IMG/VR virus record: IMGVR_UViG_3300032893_000183
Span: 1 to 36,316 of that record
Reading direction: 5' to 3' (one strand)
Source of the DNA: a virus
Length of the DNA: 36,316 nt
The position numbers and the translations under genes are program-made. The notes under the pieces were generated by a model. It ran no database searches and was not told the DNA's origin. It saw only the letters and a list, made by a program, of their open reading frames with translations. Of the stretch, positions 21,168-31,985 are shown one piece after another (the first letter of the stretch is position 1; every line of letters starts with the position of its first letter).

Positions 21168-22460
21168 TTAGAACTCTTGCAGTTGTACCTGGATCGCGCC
21201 GTTGTGACCGGGCTTGTTGGTGTACATGTTACCGTACATACCAACGCGCAGTTCAGCAGCATCGAGGCCAGGGACGCGGAGGATCTCGATCTCGTCCATG
21301 TACTTCAAGATATGGGGAGCCGGGTTCTGCGAGCGCAGGCACCACGAGTCCATCTCGAGGGCATAGATGACACCGTCCGGGCAGTTCCTGTCGGGGAACA
21401 CGCTCATCACGGTGTTGGCGCCGTTTACTTGCACGCCACGGAAGCCGATCTCACCAACTTTATGGTCAAGGTAGACCACCTTGGAGCCGAGCGAGGTGAT
21501 GAGGGCGGTGTAGGTCGAGTACGAGCAGATACCCGTATCAACGCGACCGCCGTTCAACGCAATGCGTCCAGTACCTTGGAGCAACGCTTCTTCGAGGGAC
21601 AGGGCGCTACCGTTGAAGGTCACACCGGCCAGACGCTGAACGTCTTGGTTACGGTTAACACCGAAGAAGGTGTCGGAACCGCCGGGACCAGACAAGGGCA
21701 GCCAAGCGGCCAGACCAGCGATCTTGAGGAGGCTGTTCGTGGTCGTTGAACCTGAGGGCTGGAAGTTGTTGTTGGAAGTCGTCGGCAAGTCACCTTGGAC
21801 GGCCAGGTAGTAGTTCGCGGGCCAGTCGGAGGCGATGTTGGTCGCGCAGGTCACGTTCAGGGTACCGAGGTTACGGTTCACCGAGGTGACAGTGGCGACG
21901 TCGGTCGGAGCCGAGCCGGAACCGTCGATGTTCTGAACAGCGACGAGGACTTGGTTACCTTCCAACTGAACAGCATCATCCGGGTTTGCTAGTGTAATCA
22001 AGTAGTTCGTACCTGACACGTTGGCGACCGAGGCGATCTGAGCGATCGTACCAGCACCGTTACGGAACATGGCCGAAGCGATGCGGTTGGTTTCGTTCTG
22101 GAACGCAGCGTCGATCATCAACTCAGCGCCGTCGATGAAGGCACCGGGATCAGACTGAGCAGCGGCCAGCAACTGACCATCGATCGTGGCCAGCGAGAAG
22201 TCGGACACGCGAGTGACCAAGAACTCTGCAACTAGCGGAGACGACTGGTTGTTGTAGGCGCTTGCGAAGGTGGCAGACGAGCCTTGAGTAAGTCCGTACA
22301 CGACGGGAACCGGGTAGTATTTACCAGGAAACTTCTCTTCCTTCTTGATCATGGCCAGCATCGGGTTGTCTTTGTAAGTCAACCACTGGACCTTTTGTTC
22401 GTCGTACAATTCTTTCAGGATGCCCGCGACGTTCGCTTGGGTAAAACCTGCATATGCCAT
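21168..22460 (-). CDS. Major capsid protein (HK97 fold)
   Basis: 430 aa. It follows portal and scaffold, the canonical head order. The N-terminal helix region includes GILKELYDEQKVQWLTYKDN. Then comes a GKYYPVPVVYGLTQGSSATF segment like the E-loop/N-arm start of podoviral coat proteins. The spine-helix area is AAFQNETNRIASAMFRNGAG, and the C-terminal P-domain strand region is DEIEILRVPGLDAAELRVGM followed by YGNMYTNKPGHNG. The inserted section at about 165-235 (NIDGSGSAPTDVATVTSV...) could be a surface I-domain. Translation starts behind a sequestered SD (see 22463-22531). Confidence 0.85.
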   Translation of the reverse strand: MAYAGFTQANVAGILKELYDEQKVQWLTYKDNPMLAMIKKEEKFPGKYYPVPVVYGLTQGSSATFASAYNNQSSPLVAEFLVTRVSDFSLATIDGQLLAAAQSDPGAFIDGAELMIDAAFQNETNRIASAMFRNGAGTIAQIASVANVSGTNYLITLANPDDAVQLEGNQVLVAVQNIDGSGSAPTDVATVTSVNRNLGTLNVTCATNIASDWPANYYLAVQGDLPTTSNNNFQPSGSTTTNSLLKIAGLAAWLPLSGPGGSDTFFGVNRNQDVQRLAGVTFNGSALSLEEALLQGTGRIALNGGRVDTGICSYSTYTALITSLGSKVVYLDHKVGEIGFRGVQVNGANTVMSVFPDRNCPDGVIYALEMDSWCLRSQNPAPHILKYMDEIEILRVPGLDAAELRVGMYGNMYTNKPGHNGAIQVQLQEF

Positions 22461-22462
22461 AA

Positions 22463-22531
22463 GAGTACCTCAAATTCGAGCTGGGAAGCTCGGTAATGTG
22501 TTTGGATGCTTGAGAGTGCATTGAGGTACCC
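22463..22531 (-). promoter_or_regulatory. Long-range stem sequestering the capsid gene Shine-Dalgarno
   Basis: GTACCTCAA at the 5' end pairs exactly with TTGAGGTAC at the 3' end (minus strand), extended to 11 pairs by one G-U and one G-C. The 3' arm contains GAGGT, the only ribosome site of the capsid gene, 5-8 bases before its ATG. A second perfect hairpin (CGAGCT-TCCC-AGCTCG) lies in the loop. The leader could therefore switch capsid translation between closed and open states. Confidence 0.55.
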
Positions 22532-22550
22532 GGAATGACTAGGTGGGTAT

Positions 22551-22589
22551 ATTGTCTATGACGACAATGATGCTCTACAACCTAGAGCA
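22551..22589 (-). other. Two tandem stem-loops between tRNA-Asn and the capsid gene
   Basis: TGCTCTA/TAGAGCA (7 bp, 5-nt loop; 22571-22589) and ATTGTC/GACAAT (6 bp, 6-nt loop; 22551-22568) follow each other. Neither has a U-tract on the minus strand. They may protect the processed capsid mRNA 5' end or be cleavage sites. Confidence 0.45.
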
Positions 22590-22602
22590 AAAGGTGCAAA
22601 GT
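22575..22602 (-). repeat. tRNA trailer element, copy 1
   Basis: The minus strand just downstream of tRNA-Asn reads ACTTT, GCAC, CTTTTG, CTCTA, GG, TTGTAG. The same blocks in the same order occur downstream of the tRNA-Met-like gene at 29296-29325 with only small insertions. The shared blocks total about 25 bases. It overlaps one hairpin. Confidence 0.55.
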
Positions 22603-22690
22603 CTATAGCTGGACTGGATGGGATCGAACCACCGATAGGCTCCTTAACAGGGAGCTGCCTTACCAACTTGGCTACAGTCCAACTATAGAC
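22601..22690 (-). repeat. Inverted repeat extending the tRNA-Asn acceptor stem
   Basis: GTCTATAG and CTATAGAC (22683-22690 and 22601-22608) flank the tRNA exactly. With one T-G pair between leader base -1 and the discriminator, the acceptor stem continues to 16 pairs. In RNA this makes a long perfect helix crossing both processing sites. Confidence 0.6.
22609..22681 (-). tRNA. tRNA-Asn (anticodon GTT)
   Basis: A 73-nt cloverleaf: acceptor TGGACTG/CAGTCCA (7 bp), TA, D-arm GCC-AAGTTGGTAA-GGC, anticodon arm GCTCC-CTGTTAA-GGAGC with anticodon GTT, 5-nt variable loop, T-arm GGTGG-TTCGATC-CCATC, discriminator G as in Asn tRNAs. CCA is not encoded. It lies between scaffold and capsid genes in the late transcript. 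The Asn-rich structural proteins, mostly using AAC, would benefit from an extra tRNA-Asn; that reason is inference. Confidence 0.93.
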
Positions 22691-22706
22691 TCTGCCATCA
22701 GGTACT

Positions 22707-23645: not shown

Positions 23646-25622
23646 TTATACGGCAGGCGCGTTGTTAGTGTTCTGGATCAAGGGACTGGTCGGGGTCGGG
23701 GCAGGATTCGCCATCGGCTGAACTGCAGCCTGCTGTTGGGCAGCTTGCTGAGCCTGAAGCGTCTGGAGAGCCTGTTGACCGGCGACGGCTTGCGCGGATA
23801 AACCTGTCAGATCATCCACGGCAGCTTTGAACTGCATGAGCAGCTCGAGTCGATCGTCCGGCGCGTTGTTCAGCTTCGCGTAGTTGTAGTACGCGAGGTA
23901 GAGATCGCCAGCCATCTGGAGGTCGAACTGAGGTTCTGGAGGAACGTAGACACCGTCGTTGAGCATGTCCTCGTAGATCTTATGGAGCAAGTCTTCGGCG
24001 GCGTTCGCCAGCTTGTCTGACATCTCGACATCAGGCATCGCCATGAGCCTGCGACCAGCGCGAGGGCTGATGAGCCCAGCCTGCATCCACTCTTGGACAG
24101 TTTCGTATCGGCCTGTGGGATCATCGGGCAAGCTCGAGGTCGGGTAGGCTTTGAGCACGTACTCGTCCTCTTTGAGCTGGATGTCCTTCCAGTCGATGGT
24201 CTCGATGAACTTCGCCTGTGGAAACACGACCTTATATGACTTCTTGCGCTTGTAGATGTCCTTCGCCCGGTCGATCATCTGCTTGTGGATCTCGAGGACG
24301 AAGTTTTCCATCTGTTGGCCAAGGAACAAGAAGCGATCATCTGCGATCTGGGTCATCGTGCGCAGACCTTTGCCGCTGTTAACGCCCATCGGCTTCAGGG
24401 AAGAAGACTCGAGTTGGCTCACGCCTTCTTGCTGGAACGACTTGGCGATCAGAGAGTCGATGTAGGGGTAGATGTCCTGCTGGATCATCGGAGGTGTAAC
24501 GTACTGCGGCGCCGTGCCGGTGTAGAAGATGATCGTGCCGACATCGTTGTTCAAGTGCTGGCTGACTACTCGAGAACCGTTCTCGACCAGGATCTTGAAA
24601 GAGCCGCCCATCCACATACTGCGCTGCACCAAGATCATCAGGCGGTTGATCTCCTGCTGAAGGTTCTGTAGGCGTTCGCAGGCACCTTGGCCCCAGAAGC
24701 CGATCAAGCGCTTGTTGTAATGGATCATGGGATACGGGAAGTAGTCTTCGTCCCAACTGTCCTTGTATATGACCTCGTCGCCGACACAGATAGCCTGGAG
24801 GCCATCCTTAGAATCCTTGGAGCTTCTGAGGTGATAAGATTCGCTAACCATGATGAGATCTGCAGCAGATCCTATCCCTGCCAGATCGATGAAGGCTGAC
24901 TGATGTGCGTTCTGAACGATCTCGCGGGCGCGGTCCTTAGCTTCGCCGTCATCGAATGACTCGACGAAGGCCAACATTATATCGCGGTCTACTGGTTTAA
25001 CGCGGTGCATCTGCCGGGGATTACCACCCAGGCCTTCGACGTGGTCGACGAAGAATTCGTGGGGGAAGCAGCGTTCTACCTTGACTTGATCCTCATCTTC
25101 AAAGACGTGGACGATGCCTGTTCCCCAGGCGCCAGCGTCTCGCAGTGCGTAGATGGACTTGACGTGAACATCTTCCCCGTATGCTTGTCCTTCTGCATAC
25201 TTAGAAAGCTGCTCAGCCTTGTGCTGCATGCCCCAGACACCGCCGTTGGTGAGGAAGACTGGGATGACTTTGTTCTTGGCCATCTTCGCGACCAAGGTAT
25301 CGATGACCGCAGCGCACACGTTGAAGCTGATCCTCGAGACGTTCGCGGCACCAGAGGCCGAGATCGACCGGGCAAGTCCAGGTCCGATGAAGTTGAAGGC
25401 CGACGAGTTACCGTAAAGTCGCGTAGATGAGACAAGCTGCTCAGTCCGCGTCTCTTGGTGAGTGGCGATGAACTTGATAGTGCTCTGGATCTGTCGACCC
25501 ATGTCGGTCTCTTCAGCCTTCCACCAGTAGTGCTTGGCAGCTTCGGAGACTTCCTTCTGACCTTCTTTGACCAGTACGCCATCGACGTACTTGTCCATGT
25601 GCTTGCTGTCTATCTTTGCCAT
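23646..25622 (-). CDS. Portal protein
   Basis: 658 aa, in the range of podoviral portals. N-terminal helices (MGRQIQSTIKFIATHQETRT) are followed by a conserved core: NVCAAVIDTLVAKMAKNKVI, FFVDHVEGLGGNPRQMHRVK, FPYPMIHYNKRLIGFWGQGA and CERLQNLQQEINRLMILVQR. Residues 500-560 hold PDDPTGRYETVQEWMQAGLI. The last 60 residues are Gln/Ala/Pro-rich, as in portal barrels. It would form the dodecameric vertex for DNA packaging with the terminase. Confidence 0.87.
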   Translation of the reverse strand: MAKIDSKHMDKYVDGVLVKEGQKEVSEAAKHYWWKAEETDMGRQIQSTIKFIATHQETRTEQLVSSTRLYGNSSAFNFIGPGLARSISASGAANVSRISFNVCAAVIDTLVAKMAKNKVIPVFLTNGGVWGMQHKAEQLSKYAEGQAYGEDVHVKSIYALRDAGAWGTGIVHVFEDEDQVKVERCFPHEFFVDHVEGLGGNPRQMHRVKPVDRDIMLAFVESFDDGEAKDRAREIVQNAHQSAFIDLAGIGSAADLIMVSESYHLRSSKDSKDGLQAICVGDEVIYKDSWDEDYFPYPMIHYNKRLIGFWGQGACERLQNLQQEINRLMILVQRSMWMGGSFKILVENGSRVVSQHLNNDVGTIIFYTGTAPQYVTPPMIQQDIYPYIDSLIAKSFQQEGVSQLESSSLKPMGVNSGKGLRTMTQIADDRFLFLGQQMENFVLEIHKQMIDRAKDIYKRKKSYKVVFPQAKFIETIDWKDIQLKEDEYVLKAYPTSSLPDDPTGRYETVQEWMQAGLISPRAGRRLMAMPDVEMSDKLANAAEDLLHKIYEDMLNDGVYVPPEPQFDLQMAGDLYLAYYNYAKLNNAPDDRLELLMQFKAAVDDLTGLSAQAVAGQQALQTLQAQQAAQQQAAVQPMANPAPTPTSPLIQNTNNAPAV

Positions 25623-26667: not shown

Positions 26668-26857
26668 CAGGACCTCGCTGCTCTTGAGCGTCTGCTCGCT
26701 GCTCGAATGCCAGGCGAGAGATCAGCTCTCCAAGCTCAGCTTCTGTGCGGCAGATCCACTTCTTGCGCTCGTAATGATAAGGCTGGCCTACAGCGAGGCT
26801 GTTGCCTTCAAGTACGATATATCCATTCTGGCAGTCTATGATCTCTACGGCGAACAT
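26657..26857 (-). CDS. Small hypothetical protein
   Basis: 66 aa. The N-half is beta-like (MFAVEIIDCQNGYIVLEGNS) with an aromatic cluster YHYERKKWICRT, then a helix (EAELGELISRLAFEQRADAQ). The ATG overlaps the terminase stop by one base, so it is co-expressed with it. Function unknown. Confidence 0.7.
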   Translation of the reverse strand: MFAVEIIDCQNGYIVLEGNSLAVGQPYHYERKKWICRTEAELGELISRLAFEQRADAQEQRGPDVR

Positions 26858-28368
26858 CAGCGACCTCTCTTCTTGTTCAAGAAGTGTTGAAGTGGGTTAC
26901 CGTCTCCGAACGGATCGGTGTCGACGATGGCGAATATGTCAGCTTCCTGCTCTTGAGATGCTTGAGCGTCTATCTGGCGCTGAAGCGACTCTTCCATCAA
27001 CTTCTGCGTGTGCTTCACCCAGGCGGAAGGTTCTCGCGGGTTGACCTTCTGCGGTACCGGCTCTGGCAGCCAGTGGAGACATTCCCTGAATCCATATAGC
27101 ACTGCGTCACAGATGTCTGAGTGTGGCTCGTCCTTCATGACCAGGCGATCTGAGGTAGAGCGGTCTCCGTCCCACTCAACGATCATGGCGTCCTGCGCGA
27201 AAGCGGACGTGGACTTGGCCATGAAGCGGCTTGTACGCAGTGCATCATTGAGTAGCTCGATGAAGCCGTTCTTCTGGCTCTTCTCAGCCGCACTGATAGG
27301 CAGCGACGTTCGCTTCCTGATCTCATCAGCGATCTTGGAGCCAAGGGCGCCGGTATCCATGATGACCTTCATCGGGTTGTACTTCTTGATGAGCAGCTCG
27401 ATCTTATCGGCCAGGGCGCTGATGCCAAGCTCACCACCAACAAACTCCTCAACCAGATAACAGACAGGGTAGTTCTTGTGCCAGCCGAGGACAGCGATCG
27501 CGTCTTTGTCGCGGCCTTCCTTGTTGGAGCCTAAGTCGATGGCGATGACGTAGTCAGTGAGCGCGGGAAGCGATGCGTAGTGGTTACGCTCTGCGTTATA
27601 CTTGAAGACGAGGCTGTTTGAGTCCAGGACCCATCTGCCGAAGCACTCCCGCTGGATGCTGGGATCGTCGATCGTGACGCCCTTGCGAGCACAGTCCTGA
27701 GCAATAAGCTGTTCAGCTGTCTTGCCAGACTTGCGCTGGATGTGAGGGTTCCGGTGAAGGGTCCAGCTATGGTGTGACCACTGCGTAGACTTTGAGCACT
27801 GGTAGAAGTAGCCAGCCGGGACTGGGCCAGGAGTACCGATCATGCGACATCTGCCATCCGTATCGTACAAGCGCTTGACGATGATGTCTTCCACCAGCTC
27901 TTTTATATGACTTCTGAAGGCTTGAGACTCGTCGAGGTAGACCAAGGCGACGTTTGATAGACCTCTGATCTTCTCGATGTCGGCTGCATCACCTGCTCCG
28001 AAGCAGTATATGACACTTCCGTTGGAGAACGTCATGCTTAGGTCTGACTCGTTTGGTACTCCACCGAGGTCGTAGTTGGTATTGAGCGCCTTCAGCTCAG
28101 GCCACACGATCTTCTTGGCGGAGGATCTGGCCAGGGTGATGTAGAGCCCTACGGTTCCTGAGAGTTTAAGGGCAGTGTCGATGAGGTCAGCGGCACAGGC
28201 GATGGTCTTACCAGCCCGGACAGAGCAGACAGCCGTAGCATACCGCTCTGGGTCCTTGACGAAGTCCAGTTGCTCCTTGAAGAGGAAGTTCTCCAAGACG
28301 AACCGGTTAGTCTGGTGAAGCCGCTCAGCGAGGATCTCGCCGATGACTTCCTTCCGGGCTGTGTTCAT
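26857..28368 (-). CDS. terL: Terminase large subunit
   Basis: 503 aa, the packaging motor ATPase-nuclease. Walker A is SVRAGKT (residues 49-55). Walker B is LVYLDE (142-147), ending in the acidic pair, and the coupling motif GTPG is at 178-181. The C-terminal RNase H-like nuclease shows AIDLGSNKEGRDKDAIAVLG (Asp278), KVIMDTGALGSKIADEI (Asp338) and HSDICDAVLYGFRE, supplying the acidic triad. It cuts concatemeric DNA and pumps it through the portal. Divergence is too great to infer the end type, but circular-looking ends suit headful packaging. Confidence 0.95.
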   Translation of the reverse strand: MNTARKEVIGEILAERLHQTNRFVLENFLFKEQLDFVKDPERYATAVCSVRAGKTIACAADLIDTALKLSGTVGLYITLARSSAKKIVWPELKALNTNYDLGGVPNESDLSMTFSNGSVIYCFGAGDAADIEKIRGLSNVALVYLDESQAFRSHIKELVEDIIVKRLYDTDGRCRMIGTPGPVPAGYFYQCSKSTQWSHHSWTLHRNPHIQRKSGKTAEQLIAQDCARKGVTIDDPSIQRECFGRWVLDSNSLVFKYNAERNHYASLPALTDYVIAIDLGSNKEGRDKDAIAVLGWHKNYPVCYLVEEFVGGELGISALADKIELLIKKYNPMKVIMDTGALGSKIADEIRKRTSLPISAAEKSQKNGFIELLNDALRTSRFMAKSTSAFAQDAMIVEWDGDRSTSDRLVMKDEPHSDICDAVLYGFRECLHWLPEPVPQKVNPREPSAWVKHTQKLMEESLQRQIDAQASQEQEADIFAIVDTDPFGDGNPLQHFLNKKRGR

Positions 28369-28827
28369 CTACTTCTGGGATTGCAGGGCTGCAGTCTTGG
28401 CCTGTTCTTGAACCAGGGCTTCTTGGGCAGCCTTCTTAGCTGCGGCCTTGGCAGCCTTGCGAGCTTCTGCAGCTTGGGCTTGAAGCTGTGCGTCAGAGAA
28501 CTTGTTGGGAGCCGGAGGAGGAACGACTTCTTCGCCGCGCTCTTCCATAGCTTCTCTGGCTTCCCTGAGAGCTTGGTCAGCTCGTTGCTGGGCCGGAGCC
28601 TTGATAGAGGAGAGTCCACCTTCAGGCATGAGTTCAAAGCCTTTTACGTTCGAGTAGGGCACTACGATCGTACGATTGGTCGTACGGCTTGTGGCAGCGA
28701 TCCCTATCGCCGTGGCGACGATGTGGTACTTGCTGGTGTGTAGGCTCGTCTTGGCTCCGATCAGGTCTAAGCCGACTGCGAAGTGAACGACAAGGACCTC
28801 AGGTCCTGAGTCTTTTAGGGTAGCCAT
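28369..28827 (-). CDS. Hypothetical protein with small beta domain and Ala-rich helix
   Basis: 152 aa from the second of two adjacent ATGs (28827), because AAGGAG is 5 bases before it but only 2 before the first. Residues 1-70 are beta-rich (LVVHFAVGLDLIGAKTSLHT, NRTIVVPYSNVKGFELMP). Residues 90-152 are Ala/Lys/Gln helix (AAEARKAAKAAAKKAAQEAL). The stop abuts the terminase start. Possibly a packaging accessory; unproven. Confidence 0.72.
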   Translation of the reverse strand: MATLKDSGPEVLVVHFAVGLDLIGAKTSLHTSKYHIVATAIGIAATSRTTNRTIVVPYSNVKGFELMPEGGLSSIKAPAQQRADQALREAREAMEERGEEVVPPPAPNKFSDAQLQAQAAEARKAAKAAAKKAAQEALVQEQAKTAALQSQK

Positions 28828-29267
28828 CATGTCTCCTTTGGAGGTAGTTGGTATAGGCTGAAAGGGTTGTAGGTGAACTTTGCACAGAAGCGTGCTGCGG
28901 TCTTGGTCTTGTGGGTGATAGATACTGCACTGACACTCTGCGTTGGAAAGGCTTCGGCCAGGAGCGCCTTGGTCAGCCCAAAGCCTCTGAATGCTTCTTT
29001 AACGAAAACGTAGTGGAGCGTGGCTGTACTTGGTTCAGTTACCGCGTAGCCAAAGATGACCGAGGGCTGGTCAGGCTTGCAGACAACGAATGTTTTTGTG
29101 GTGTTTTTTGATAAGATTTGATCGAGAACGCGCTGGTAATTGTCGAAGAATATGCTCTTCTTTACCGAAGATCCCACTAGCGAATCGTTCCTATAGCTTC
29201 TGAGCCATGAGGAGTAGATGAAGGGAATATCGTCGCCCTGGACGGGCCTGATCGCGTAATCGGTCAT
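28827..29267 (-). CDS. GNAT-family N-acetyltransferase
   Basis: 146 aa. The Met at 29267 is chosen because further upstream extension would run into the tRNA. Features: MTDYAIRPVQGDDIPFIYSS (strand 1/helix 1), FGYAVTEPSTATLHYVFVKE (strands 3-4), then the acetyl-CoA pyrophosphate loop RGFGLTKALL matching R-G-x-G-x, and a C-terminal AARFCAKFTYNPF. It would transfer acetyl from acetyl-CoA to an unknown amine. Similar genes sit beside phage terminases; a host-modifying role is inference. Confidence 0.8.
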   Translation of the reverse strand: MTDYAIRPVQGDDIPFIYSSWLRSYRNDSLVGSSVKKSIFFDNYQRVLDQILSKNTTKTFVVCKPDQPSVIFGYAVTEPSTATLHYVFVKEAFRGFGLTKALLAEAFPTQSVSAVSITHKTKTAARFCAKFTYNPFSLYQLPPKET

Positions 29268-29328: not shown

Positions 29329-29424
29329 GAGGGGTACAGTTGCGGAGACGGTGCTTTCATCCGTGGTCTCCAGCTTATGAGGCTGGCGAGATAATGTCTT
29401 CTCCACTCCGCAACTCTACCCCTC
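29329..29424 (-). repeat. Inverted repeat extending the tRNA-Met-like acceptor stem
   Basis: GAGGGGTAGAGT (minus strand 29424-29413) and ACTGTACCCCTC (29340-29329) flank the tRNA-like body and pair at 11 of 12 positions, with a single G-G mismatch. Together with the acceptor this is a 19-position helix. The 5' arm includes the stop codon of the upstream HTH gene. Confidence 0.6.
29340..29412 (-). tRNA. tRNA-Met-like gene (anticodon CAT), degenerate loops
   Basis: Exactly 73 nt with tRNA geometry: acceptor TGCGGAG/CTCCGCA (7 bp), TG, D-arm GAGA-AGACATTA-TCTC, anticodon arm CCAGC-CTCATAA-GCTGG (anticodon CAT, T33, A37), variable AGACC, T-arm ACGGA-TGAAAGC-ACCGT (4 pairs plus A-A), discriminator A. 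The D-loop lacks the GG pair and the T-loop lacks the TTC that normally contact each other. It could be a functional odd tRNA-Met/Ile2, a decoy or a decaying gene. Standard covariance search may score it low. Confidence 0.55.
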
Positions 29425-31305: not shown

Positions 31306-31467
31306 ATGAATACTCCTCCTGAAGAAAGCAAGCAGAAAGTAAGTTACTTGGCGATGACACACTGCATTACTGATGAGGCTGTGGCGATTTGCCATTTTTT
31401 CGCGAGGAAAAACGTGGAGTTACGTAAATTGGATAATACGTATAGTACAAAGGAGAAAAAACCATGA
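31306..31467 (+). CDS. 53-aa first gene of the rightward unit
   Basis: MNTPPEESKQKVSYLAMTHC, then ITDEAVAICHFFARKNVELR and a charged end. The stop TGA overlaps the endonuclease ATG (ATGA at 31464-31467), the same junction used along the rest of this operon, which supports it being real. No good SD precedes the ATG, consistent with a leaderless start. Unknown function; small early phage proteins often target host factors. Confidence 0.6.
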   Translation: MNTPPEESKQKVSYLAMTHCITDEAVAICHFFARKNVELRKLDNTYSTKEKKP

Positions 31468-31985
31468 AAACACACACGGTTTATCGATTGAGAAACTTAC
31501 AAGGACAGACGATGTGGATTGGACAGACGATCAACTTAGAGGCTAGACTCTTGCATCATAGTAGATGGCGCTACGGTGCCTGCTATGGCGTGCAGTTCAC
31601 ACATGAGATCATAGCTGAGGGTCTCAGTAAAGATGCAGCCTTGAGGCTGGAAAGCTGGTTAATAGCCTACCATAACATCGCCGATCGACTGTCTATGCTC
31701 AATAGGGCAACATATGGCTGTCGTGGCTTTAAGCGGCGCGCCTCGTCGAACGAACTTACATCACTACATAGCAATATGATCTTAGTCGATTCGTTTGGAA
31801 AACAATTCAAGAACGTTAAGCATGCTGCGAGATGGCATAGACTATCTACATCGAACATATCTGCCAACTCTAACGGCAAGACCAATTATTGTTGGTCTCG
31901 TCGCTTTGGGGCTGGAAAGTTTCAAAAAATTCGAGTAAGCTTTAGATGGTTAACAAAGCTTGAATGCTCAAAAGGAGGCCTATAA
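31464..31985 (+). CDS. GIY-YIG homing endonuclease
   Basis: 173 aa. The GIY-YIG domain spans residues 5-90: TVY (5-7) and WIG (18-20) replace the signature strands, the catalytic Arg is Arg28 (NLEARL), the metal-binding Glu is Glu63 (RLESWL), and the conserved Asn is Asn80 (MLNRATYG). Residues 100-155 look like a NUMOD1-type DNA-binding repeat (FKNVKHAARWHRLSTSNISA, then a YCWSRRF end). A strong AAAGGAG precedes the ATG. Freestanding homing enzymes cut cognate intron-less or gene-less alleles and spread; its codon use and insertion between two small genes suit recent acquisition. Confidence 0.85.
   Translation: MKTHTVYRLRNLQGQTMWIGQTINLEARLLHHSRWRYGACYGVQFTHEIIAEGLSKDAALRLESWLIAYHNIADRLSMLNRATYGCRGFKRRASSNELTSLHSNMILVDSFGKQFKNVKHAARWHRLSTSNISANSNGKTNYCWSRRFGAGKFQKIRVSFRWLTKLECSKGGL

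What the first reader, a model, noticed from the sequence alone, without database searches (positions are those of the whole stretch)
29329..29424. The second tRNA-like gene has the same extended-stem architecture with unrelated sequence
Twelve-base arms pair at 11 positions and add to the 7-bp acceptor. The arm sequence differs from that at tRNA-Asn, so the shared property is structure, not copying. Two of two tRNA genes having it suggests selection for a long helix, giving a tRNA-punctuation-like scheme in the late transcript.
Basis: seen in the sequence. Interest (0 to 1): 0.75.

Follow-up and report, generated by a model that had tools for sequence, protein, structure and literature searches.

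The report
Phage tRNA sheathed in extra helix
Both tRNA-type genes of this uncultured phage are enclosed by a 12-14 base-pair helix that lengthens the tRNA's acceptor stem, an arrangement found in only about 1% of viral tRNA genes and kept by matched mutations in other phages, which points to a selected RNA processing or protection signal that I did not find described.

Summary
At 29329-29424 (minus strand) a CAU tRNA-like gene (29340-29412; Rfam tRNA, 44.7 bits) is flanked by arms that pair at 11 of 12 positions, in register with the 7-bp acceptor. It and the tRNA-Asn hairpin are the two best inverted repeats of the window. Chance is unlikely for these flanks (2.5e-5). In about 1,655 viral tRNAs sampled without regard to flanks, long outer helices form a separate class: 14 seen against 0.8 expected. 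They are concentrated in tRNA-His (10/61) and tRNA-Asn (3/84), against 3/1,510 for the rest. In 15 extended tRNA-His genes, including T4-like Aeromonas and Stenotrophomonas phages, positions -2 to -13 pair in 179 of 180 cells despite many compensatory swaps, and the helix stops near -14. 'Punctuation of the late transcript' is weaker: most relatives lack these tRNAs, and one carries its sheathed tRNA antisense to the late genes. Best reading: a leader-trailer processing stalk around a tRNA, probably cut by RNase III, because such a stem should hinder RNase P. The cleavage is inferred.

The parts
29413..29424 (-). 5' (leader) arm of the outer helix, GAGGGGTAGAGT, positions -12 to -1; contains the stop codon TAG (29416-29418) of the upstream ORF
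   Evidence: 11/12 pairs with 29329-29340
29340..29412 (-). tRNA-like gene with anticodon CAU (29377-29379); four stems intact, D-loop GG and T-loop TTC lost, no encoded CCA
   Evidence: Rfam RF00005 44.7 bits in a local scan; ARAGORN mitochondrial mode calls Met(CAT); the CCAGC CTCATAA GCTGG anticodon arm is shared with many viral tRNA-Met genes
29329..29340 (-). 3' (trailer) arm of the outer helix, ACTGTACCCCTC, starting at the discriminator (position 73)
22682..22695 (-). 5' arm of the tRNA-Asn outer helix (-14 to -1), all paired, two of the pairs G-U
22609..22681 (-). tRNA-Asn (GUU), canonical, no encoded CCA; lies between the putative scaffold gene and the major capsid gene
   Evidence: ARAGORN; Rfam 62.8 bits
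22596..22609 (-). 3' arm of the tRNA-Asn outer helix
29416..29826 (-). ORF of 136 aa just upstream of the CAU gene, no family match
28827..29267 (-). acetyltransferase-like ORF just downstream of the CAU gene (probable start ATG at 29267; the ATG at 29360 lies inside the tRNA-like gene)
   Evidence: PHROG 3810 acetyltransferase, E = 7e-4; start chosen by reading the sequence
21168..22460 (-). major capsid protein gene, downstream of tRNA-Asn
   Evidence: PHROG 9953 major head protein, E = 4e-4; relatives 78-93% identical

Best explanation
These are phage tRNA genes whose leader and trailer form a 12-15 bp leader-trailer helix coaxial with the acceptor stem. Shown here: the helix exists, is not chance, belongs to a separate class among viral tRNAs, and in tRNA-His members of that class is kept by compensatory changes. 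Inferred: the transcript folds into one rod of 19-22 bp (acceptor plus outer helix, about two turns of A-form RNA). A dsRNA endonuclease, most likely host RNase III, cuts this rod, much as it cuts the leader-trailer stalks of pre-16S and pre-23S rRNA. That frees the tRNA from a polycistronic transcript independently of RNase E, and RNase P, 3' nucleases and CCA-adding enzyme then finish the ends. A side effect in the late operon would be a cut and a stable hairpin end beside the acetyltransferase/terminase and capsid messages.
For: Register: the arms are contiguous with the acceptor stem. Excess over partner-swapped flanks: score >=10, 14 observed against 0.8 expected; >=11, 10 against 0.05. 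Covariation: 179/180 cells paired at -2 to -13 in 15 tRNA-His genes, against a shuffle mean of 133 and maximum of 160; AT, TA, GC and CG alternate at the same positions and the helix ends near -14. Aes508 and IME13 differ by a compensated T-A to G-C change. Encoded CCA with leader UGG, or CCT with AGG, alternate in matched fashion. In the pooled helices G-U pairs outnumber A-C mismatches 42 to 5, as expected for RNA of the tRNA strand rather than a DNA cruciform (the selection tolerated G-U, so partly biased). A 2-bp extension already slows E. coli RNase P about 10-fold (PMC10731613), so a first cut elsewhere is likely. Precedent: RNase III releases rRNA precursors by cutting leader-trailer helices (PMC10250234).
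Against: No RNA data: cleavage is not shown. A generic processing signal does not explain why tRNA-His and tRNA-Asn are preferred while neighbours in the same cluster lack it. The host is unknown, so its nucleases are unknown. The window's two genes have no orthologues with arms, so their own helices are not tested by covariation.
Confidence: 0.5

Rival explanations
1. Maturation block or decoy: the sheath prevents RNase P and 3' maturation, so the RNA stays an uncharged, exonuclease-resistant tRNA mimic that titrates host tRNA-targeting nucleases (anticodon nucleases of defence systems) or other tRNA-binding factors.
For: Extended acceptor pairing slows RNase P (PMC10731613). Extended genes are concentrated in His(GUG) and Asn(GUU), with single Pro-UGG, Lys-UUU and Thr-CGU cases. 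These five are all on the list of probable AriB (PARIS) targets Lys-UUU, Thr-UGU, Asn-GUU, Thr-CGU, His-GUG and Pro-UGG (PMC12409363); post hoc P about 0.002-0.005 for the non-His/Asn cases. The CAU gene has lost its elbow contacts but kept all stems, odd for a working tRNA.
Against: The isotype match is post hoc and the Met-based sample adds Gly and Ala cases. CAU is not on the AriB list. Several members keep canonical loops and some keep an encoded CCA, as for translating tRNAs. Known phage escape from PARIS and retrons uses phage tRNAs that replace the cut ones.
Confidence: 0.17
2. tRNA punctuation of the late transcript as in mitochondria: the tRNAs are there mainly to cut and cap the structural mRNA, and the helix strengthens the signal.
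For: Both genes lie between late genes on the late strand; tRNA-Asn lies just upstream of the capsid gene, where some relatives also carry tRNAs of various isotypes.
Against: Most relatives lack the tRNA. L009 carries its sheathed tRNA antisense to the late genes. L025, L031 and L040 have tRNAs at the same place without a sheath. The class also occurs inside tRNA clusters.
Confidence: 0.12
3. A DNA-level feature (cruciform, recombination, homing or insertion site) that happens to enclose a tRNA gene.
For: GIY-YIG endonuclease genes lie near sheathed tRNAs (window 31464-31985; Aes508). Palindromes are typical of mobile DNA.
Against: The arms are in exact register with the acceptor stem, G-U pairs exceed A-C mismatches 42 to 5, and arm sequences differ between genes, so there is no shared recognition sequence.
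Confidence: 0.07
4. Chance or a by-product: leader and trailer pair by coincidence.
For: Base composition allows short helices around many tRNAs (score >=6: 63 observed, 70 expected).
Against: P = 2.5e-5 for this gene's flanks; the top two inverted repeats of 36 kb are both tRNA genes; covariation in the class.
Confidence: 0.02

Closest known systems
Leader-trailer helices of pre-16S and pre-23S rRNA cut by RNase III (PMC10250234)
   Same: Complementary leader and trailer of a stable RNA form a long helix, supported by covariation, around the mature domain.
   Different: Encloses a tRNA, not an rRNA; 12-15 bp rather than 25-40 bp; RNase III cleavage not shown.
Ordinary phage tRNA genes (Rfam RF00005), for example the T5 and T4-like clusters
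   Same: Same cloverleaf and gene neighbourhoods; sheathed tRNA-His and tRNA-Asn sit among ordinary tRNAs in Aeromonas phages Aes508, AS4 and AhFM11.
   Different: About 99% of viral tRNAs have at most 4 outer pairs, and the tRNA-His and tRNA-Asn of phage T5 have no outer helix in register.
tRNA punctuation in mitochondrial transcripts
   Same: tRNAs between protein genes of one transcript; the CAU gene is also elbow-poor, like many mitochondrial tRNAs.
   Different: Mitochondrial punctuation uses RNase P and RNase Z on ordinary acceptor stems (own knowledge); here the stem is extended and placement is not conserved.
Bulge-helix-bulge leader-trailer pairing of archaeal and permuted tRNA precursors (own knowledge)
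   Same: Leader and trailer paired next to the acceptor stem.
   Different: No pair of 3-nt bulges around a 4-bp helix; the helix is continuous or has a single mismatch.

Membership tests
tRNA (RF00005) | Score above the gathering cut-off and four-stem cloverleaf | tested here: met
   44.7 bits against 29; cloverleaf -23.4 kcal/mol against an MFE of -25.0 for the body
tRNA (RF00005) | Conserved elbow: D-loop GG and T-loop TTC | tested here: not met
   The CAU gene has loops AGACATTA and TGAAAGC; tRNA-Asn keeps canonical loops. The CAU gene is therefore called tRNA-like, not a proven tRNA
RNase III leader-trailer stalk | Long continuous helix of about two turns closing a stable RNA | tested here: met
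   19 positions with one mismatch here, 21 at tRNA-Asn; class mostly 10-15 bp plus the 7-bp acceptor
RNase III leader-trailer stalk | Covariation of the helix | tested here: met
   Met for the tRNA-His members of the class; not testable for the window's own genes, no orthologue with arms
RNase III leader-trailer stalk | Cleavage by RNase III | not testable with these tools
   needs RNA from infected cells
tRNA punctuation of an mRNA | tRNA consistently placed and oriented between mRNAs | tested here: not met
   absent in most relatives, isotype changes, antisense in L009
Intrinsic terminator | Short GC-rich hairpin followed at once by a U run | tested here: not met
   By reading: the 3' arm is followed by CTCACTTTCTGCAC and the inner part is 58 nt; no terminator scan was run
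Bulge-helix-bulge tRNA precursor | Two 3-nt bulges around a 4-bp helix at the acceptor end | tested here: not met
   pair patterns are continuous or have single mismatches

The most novel reading that the evidence does not exclude
A distinct class of phage 'sheathed tRNAs', mostly tRNA-His(GUG) and tRNA-Asn(GUU), whose leader-trailer helix controls or blocks maturation, so that the RNA acts against host tRNA-cutting defences or becomes a tRNA made only by an RNase III-dependent route during infection.
Probability: 0.2. Interest if true: 0.8.

Novelty: new variant of a known kind. Interest (0 to 1): 0.58.

Why it matters
Phage tRNAs are usually read as codon supplements or as answers to tRNA-cutting defences, and their flanks are ignored. 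A conserved helix that should hinder RNase P implies another maturation route or a non-translational role. It is directly testable in culturable T4-like Aeromonas phages, where tRNA-His and tRNA-Asn carry it and their cluster neighbours do not.

Tried and rejected
DNA similarity of the window in named phages: no match. Copying between the two arms: sequences unrelated. Other long inverted repeats in 670 kb of related viral loci: apart from AT-rich DNA in L002 and scattered matches that look like coding DNA, only the tRNA hairpins stood out. Orthologue of the CAU gene in relatives: none found; its anticodon arm is common in viral tRNA-Met genes, several of them also missed by ARAGORN. Phage T5 as a model: its tRNA-His and tRNA-Asn are not sheathed. 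A closest-relative test at the same site fails: L003 (93% capsid identity) has no tRNA there. L024's outer pairing lies beyond an internal loop and is not counted as a sure member. Host: one relative sits in a Burkholderiales MAG, but its contig is phage-sized and may be misbinned. Literature searches for extended-stem or RNase III-processed phage tRNAs found nothing on point; the library lacks most subscription papers.

Full report
The thing itself. The window is a 36.3-kb virus contig. Its late genes run on the minus strand: a terminase large subunit at 26857-28368 (PHROG 2, E = 1e-32), a weak head-tail adaptor match at 23646-25622 and a weak major head match at 21168-22460. The finding lies at 29329-29424, minus strand, between an unknown 136-aa ORF and an acetyltransferase-like ORF. 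Read on the minus strand it is GAGGGGTAGAGT - TGCGGAG...CTCCGCA - ACTGTACCCCTC: a 7-bp acceptor continued outwards by 12 positions of which 11 pair, with one G.G mismatch at -4:76. Inside is a cloverleaf with anticodon CAU. Rfam scores it 44.7 bits (gathering 29) when the stretch is scanned alone, while the fast whole-window scan and ARAGORN's bacterial mode miss it; ARAGORN's mitochondrial mode calls Met. All four stems are present, but the D-loop GG and the T-loop TTC are gone, so the elbow contacts of a normal tRNA are missing. Its anticodon arm CCAGC-CTCATAA-GCTGG is common in viral tRNA-Met genes. The first tRNA, Asn(GUU) at 22609-22681, is canonical and has a 14-bp outer helix without a break.

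Is it more than chance? The two tRNA hairpins are the best and second-best inverted repeats of the whole window, both with 58 nt between the arms. The CAU hairpin folds at -53.3 kcal/mol, z = -4.4, the Asn hairpin at z = -4.6. With the CAU gene's own trailer shuffled, 11 of 12 Watson-Crick pairs arise with probability 2.5e-5.

Is it normal for viral tRNAs? I fetched about 160 viral loci by tRNA core patterns that say nothing about the flanks (Asn; His) and measured the pairing of leader and trailer next to the acceptor stem for every tRNA in them: 1,655 unique genes. The distribution has two separate parts: nearly all tRNAs have 0-4 outer pairs, one has 7, and about 1% have 10 or more. Against leaders paired with trailers of other tRNAs, scores of 10 or more are seen 14 times where 0.8 are expected, and of 11 or more 10 times where 0.05 are expected. 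The members are mostly tRNA-His (10 of 61) and tRNA-Asn (3 of 84), against 3 of 1,510 for all others (Fisher 1e-12 and 0.0025; related genomes inflate the first). A separate Met-based sample of 364 tRNAs gave three members of 14 or more: Gly, Pro and Ala.

Is the helix selected? Fifteen extended tRNA-His genes, five of them from named T4-like phages (Aeromonas Aes508, AS4, AhFM11 and Aswh_1; Stenotrophomonas IME13), were laid on each other by distance from the acceptor stem. Positions -2 to -13 against 74 to 85 are paired in 179 of 180 cells although most positions switch between AT, TA, GC and CG. Swapping trailers among the genes gives 133 on average and 160 at most in 5,000 trials. At -15 and -16 fewer than half are paired. 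In the same named phages tRNA-Asn carries such a helix too, while the other tRNAs of the cluster do not. Where CCA is encoded the leader reads UGG, and where it is CCT the leader reads AGG.

The relatives of this phage. Capsid and portal searches gave some 40 related contigs. At the junction before the capsid gene a few carry a tRNA: Asn in L024 and L040, Gln in L025/L031, His in L009; most carry none. L009's tRNA-His has the same design as the window, no CCA and an outer helix of 11 of 12 pairs with the same G.G mismatch at -4:76, but lies antisense to the late genes. L025, L031 and L040 encode CCA and have no sheath. The tRNA content of this site thus turns over quickly, which argues against a conserved punctuation of the late transcript.

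How it most likely works. A two-base-pair extension of the acceptor stem already lowers RNase P efficiency about tenfold in E. coli (PMC10731613), so a 12-15 bp extension should need another first cut. The acceptor plus outer helix makes 19-22 bp, about two turns of A-form RNA, the size usually given for bacterial RNase III substrates (own knowledge). The best known parallel is the leader-trailer helix of pre-rRNA, which RNase III cuts to release the precursor (PMC10250234). I therefore favour a processing stalk at 0.5. The main rival is that the sheath keeps the RNA immature as a tRNA mimic or decoy. A curious lead: the extended isotypes of the Asn- and His-based sample (His, Asn, Pro-UGG, Lys-UUU, Thr-CGU) all lie on the list of probable targets of the PARIS nuclease AriB (PMC12409363); the match is post hoc, about 0.002-0.005 by binomial, and is not followed by the Gly and Ala cases or by the CAU gene here.

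Verdict. Observation confirmed, selection for a long helix supported for the class, punctuation reading weak. I found no description of this class in the literature that I could search. New variant of a known kind.

Noticed in passing
window 22461-22590 (-): The capsid gene's 5' leader has recurring elements in relatives: a hairpin with TAGACA, a GCCC..GGGC hairpin, and ACCTCAA far upstream of TTGAGGT, which contains the Shine-Dalgarno sequence, so the ribosome site may be sequestered.
   Followed up: partly
L009 7995-8093: tRNA-His with the same sheath and the same G.G mismatch at -4:76 as the window's CAU gene, antisense to the late genes; Rfam does not report it even in a local scan.
   Followed up: yes
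L195 900-980 and L193 348-430: In T4-like Aeromonas phages the encoded CCA end of tRNA-Asn pairs with a leader UGG; in a sister phage CCT pairs with AGG, a compensated loss of the encoded CCA.
   Followed up: partly
L386 4931-5288: Two neighbouring tRNAs (Pro, Ala) in one viral contig both carry a 14-position outer helix, like the window's two of two.
   Followed up: no
window 31464-31985 (+): GIY-YIG homing endonuclease about 2 kb from the CAU gene; a Seg-like GIY-YIG gene also precedes the sheathed tRNA-His of Aes508.
   Followed up: no
L324, L345, L349, L350, L373, L384, L385: Degenerate tRNA-Met-like genes with the anticodon arm CCAGCCTCATAAGCTGG that ARAGORN misses, often ending in CAACCA or similar; they resemble the window's CAU gene without the sheath.
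   Followed up: partly
scaffold-capsid junction in window, L009, L024, L025, L031, L040: Repeated gain of tRNAs of different isotype at one intergenic site upstream of the capsid gene.
   Followed up: partly
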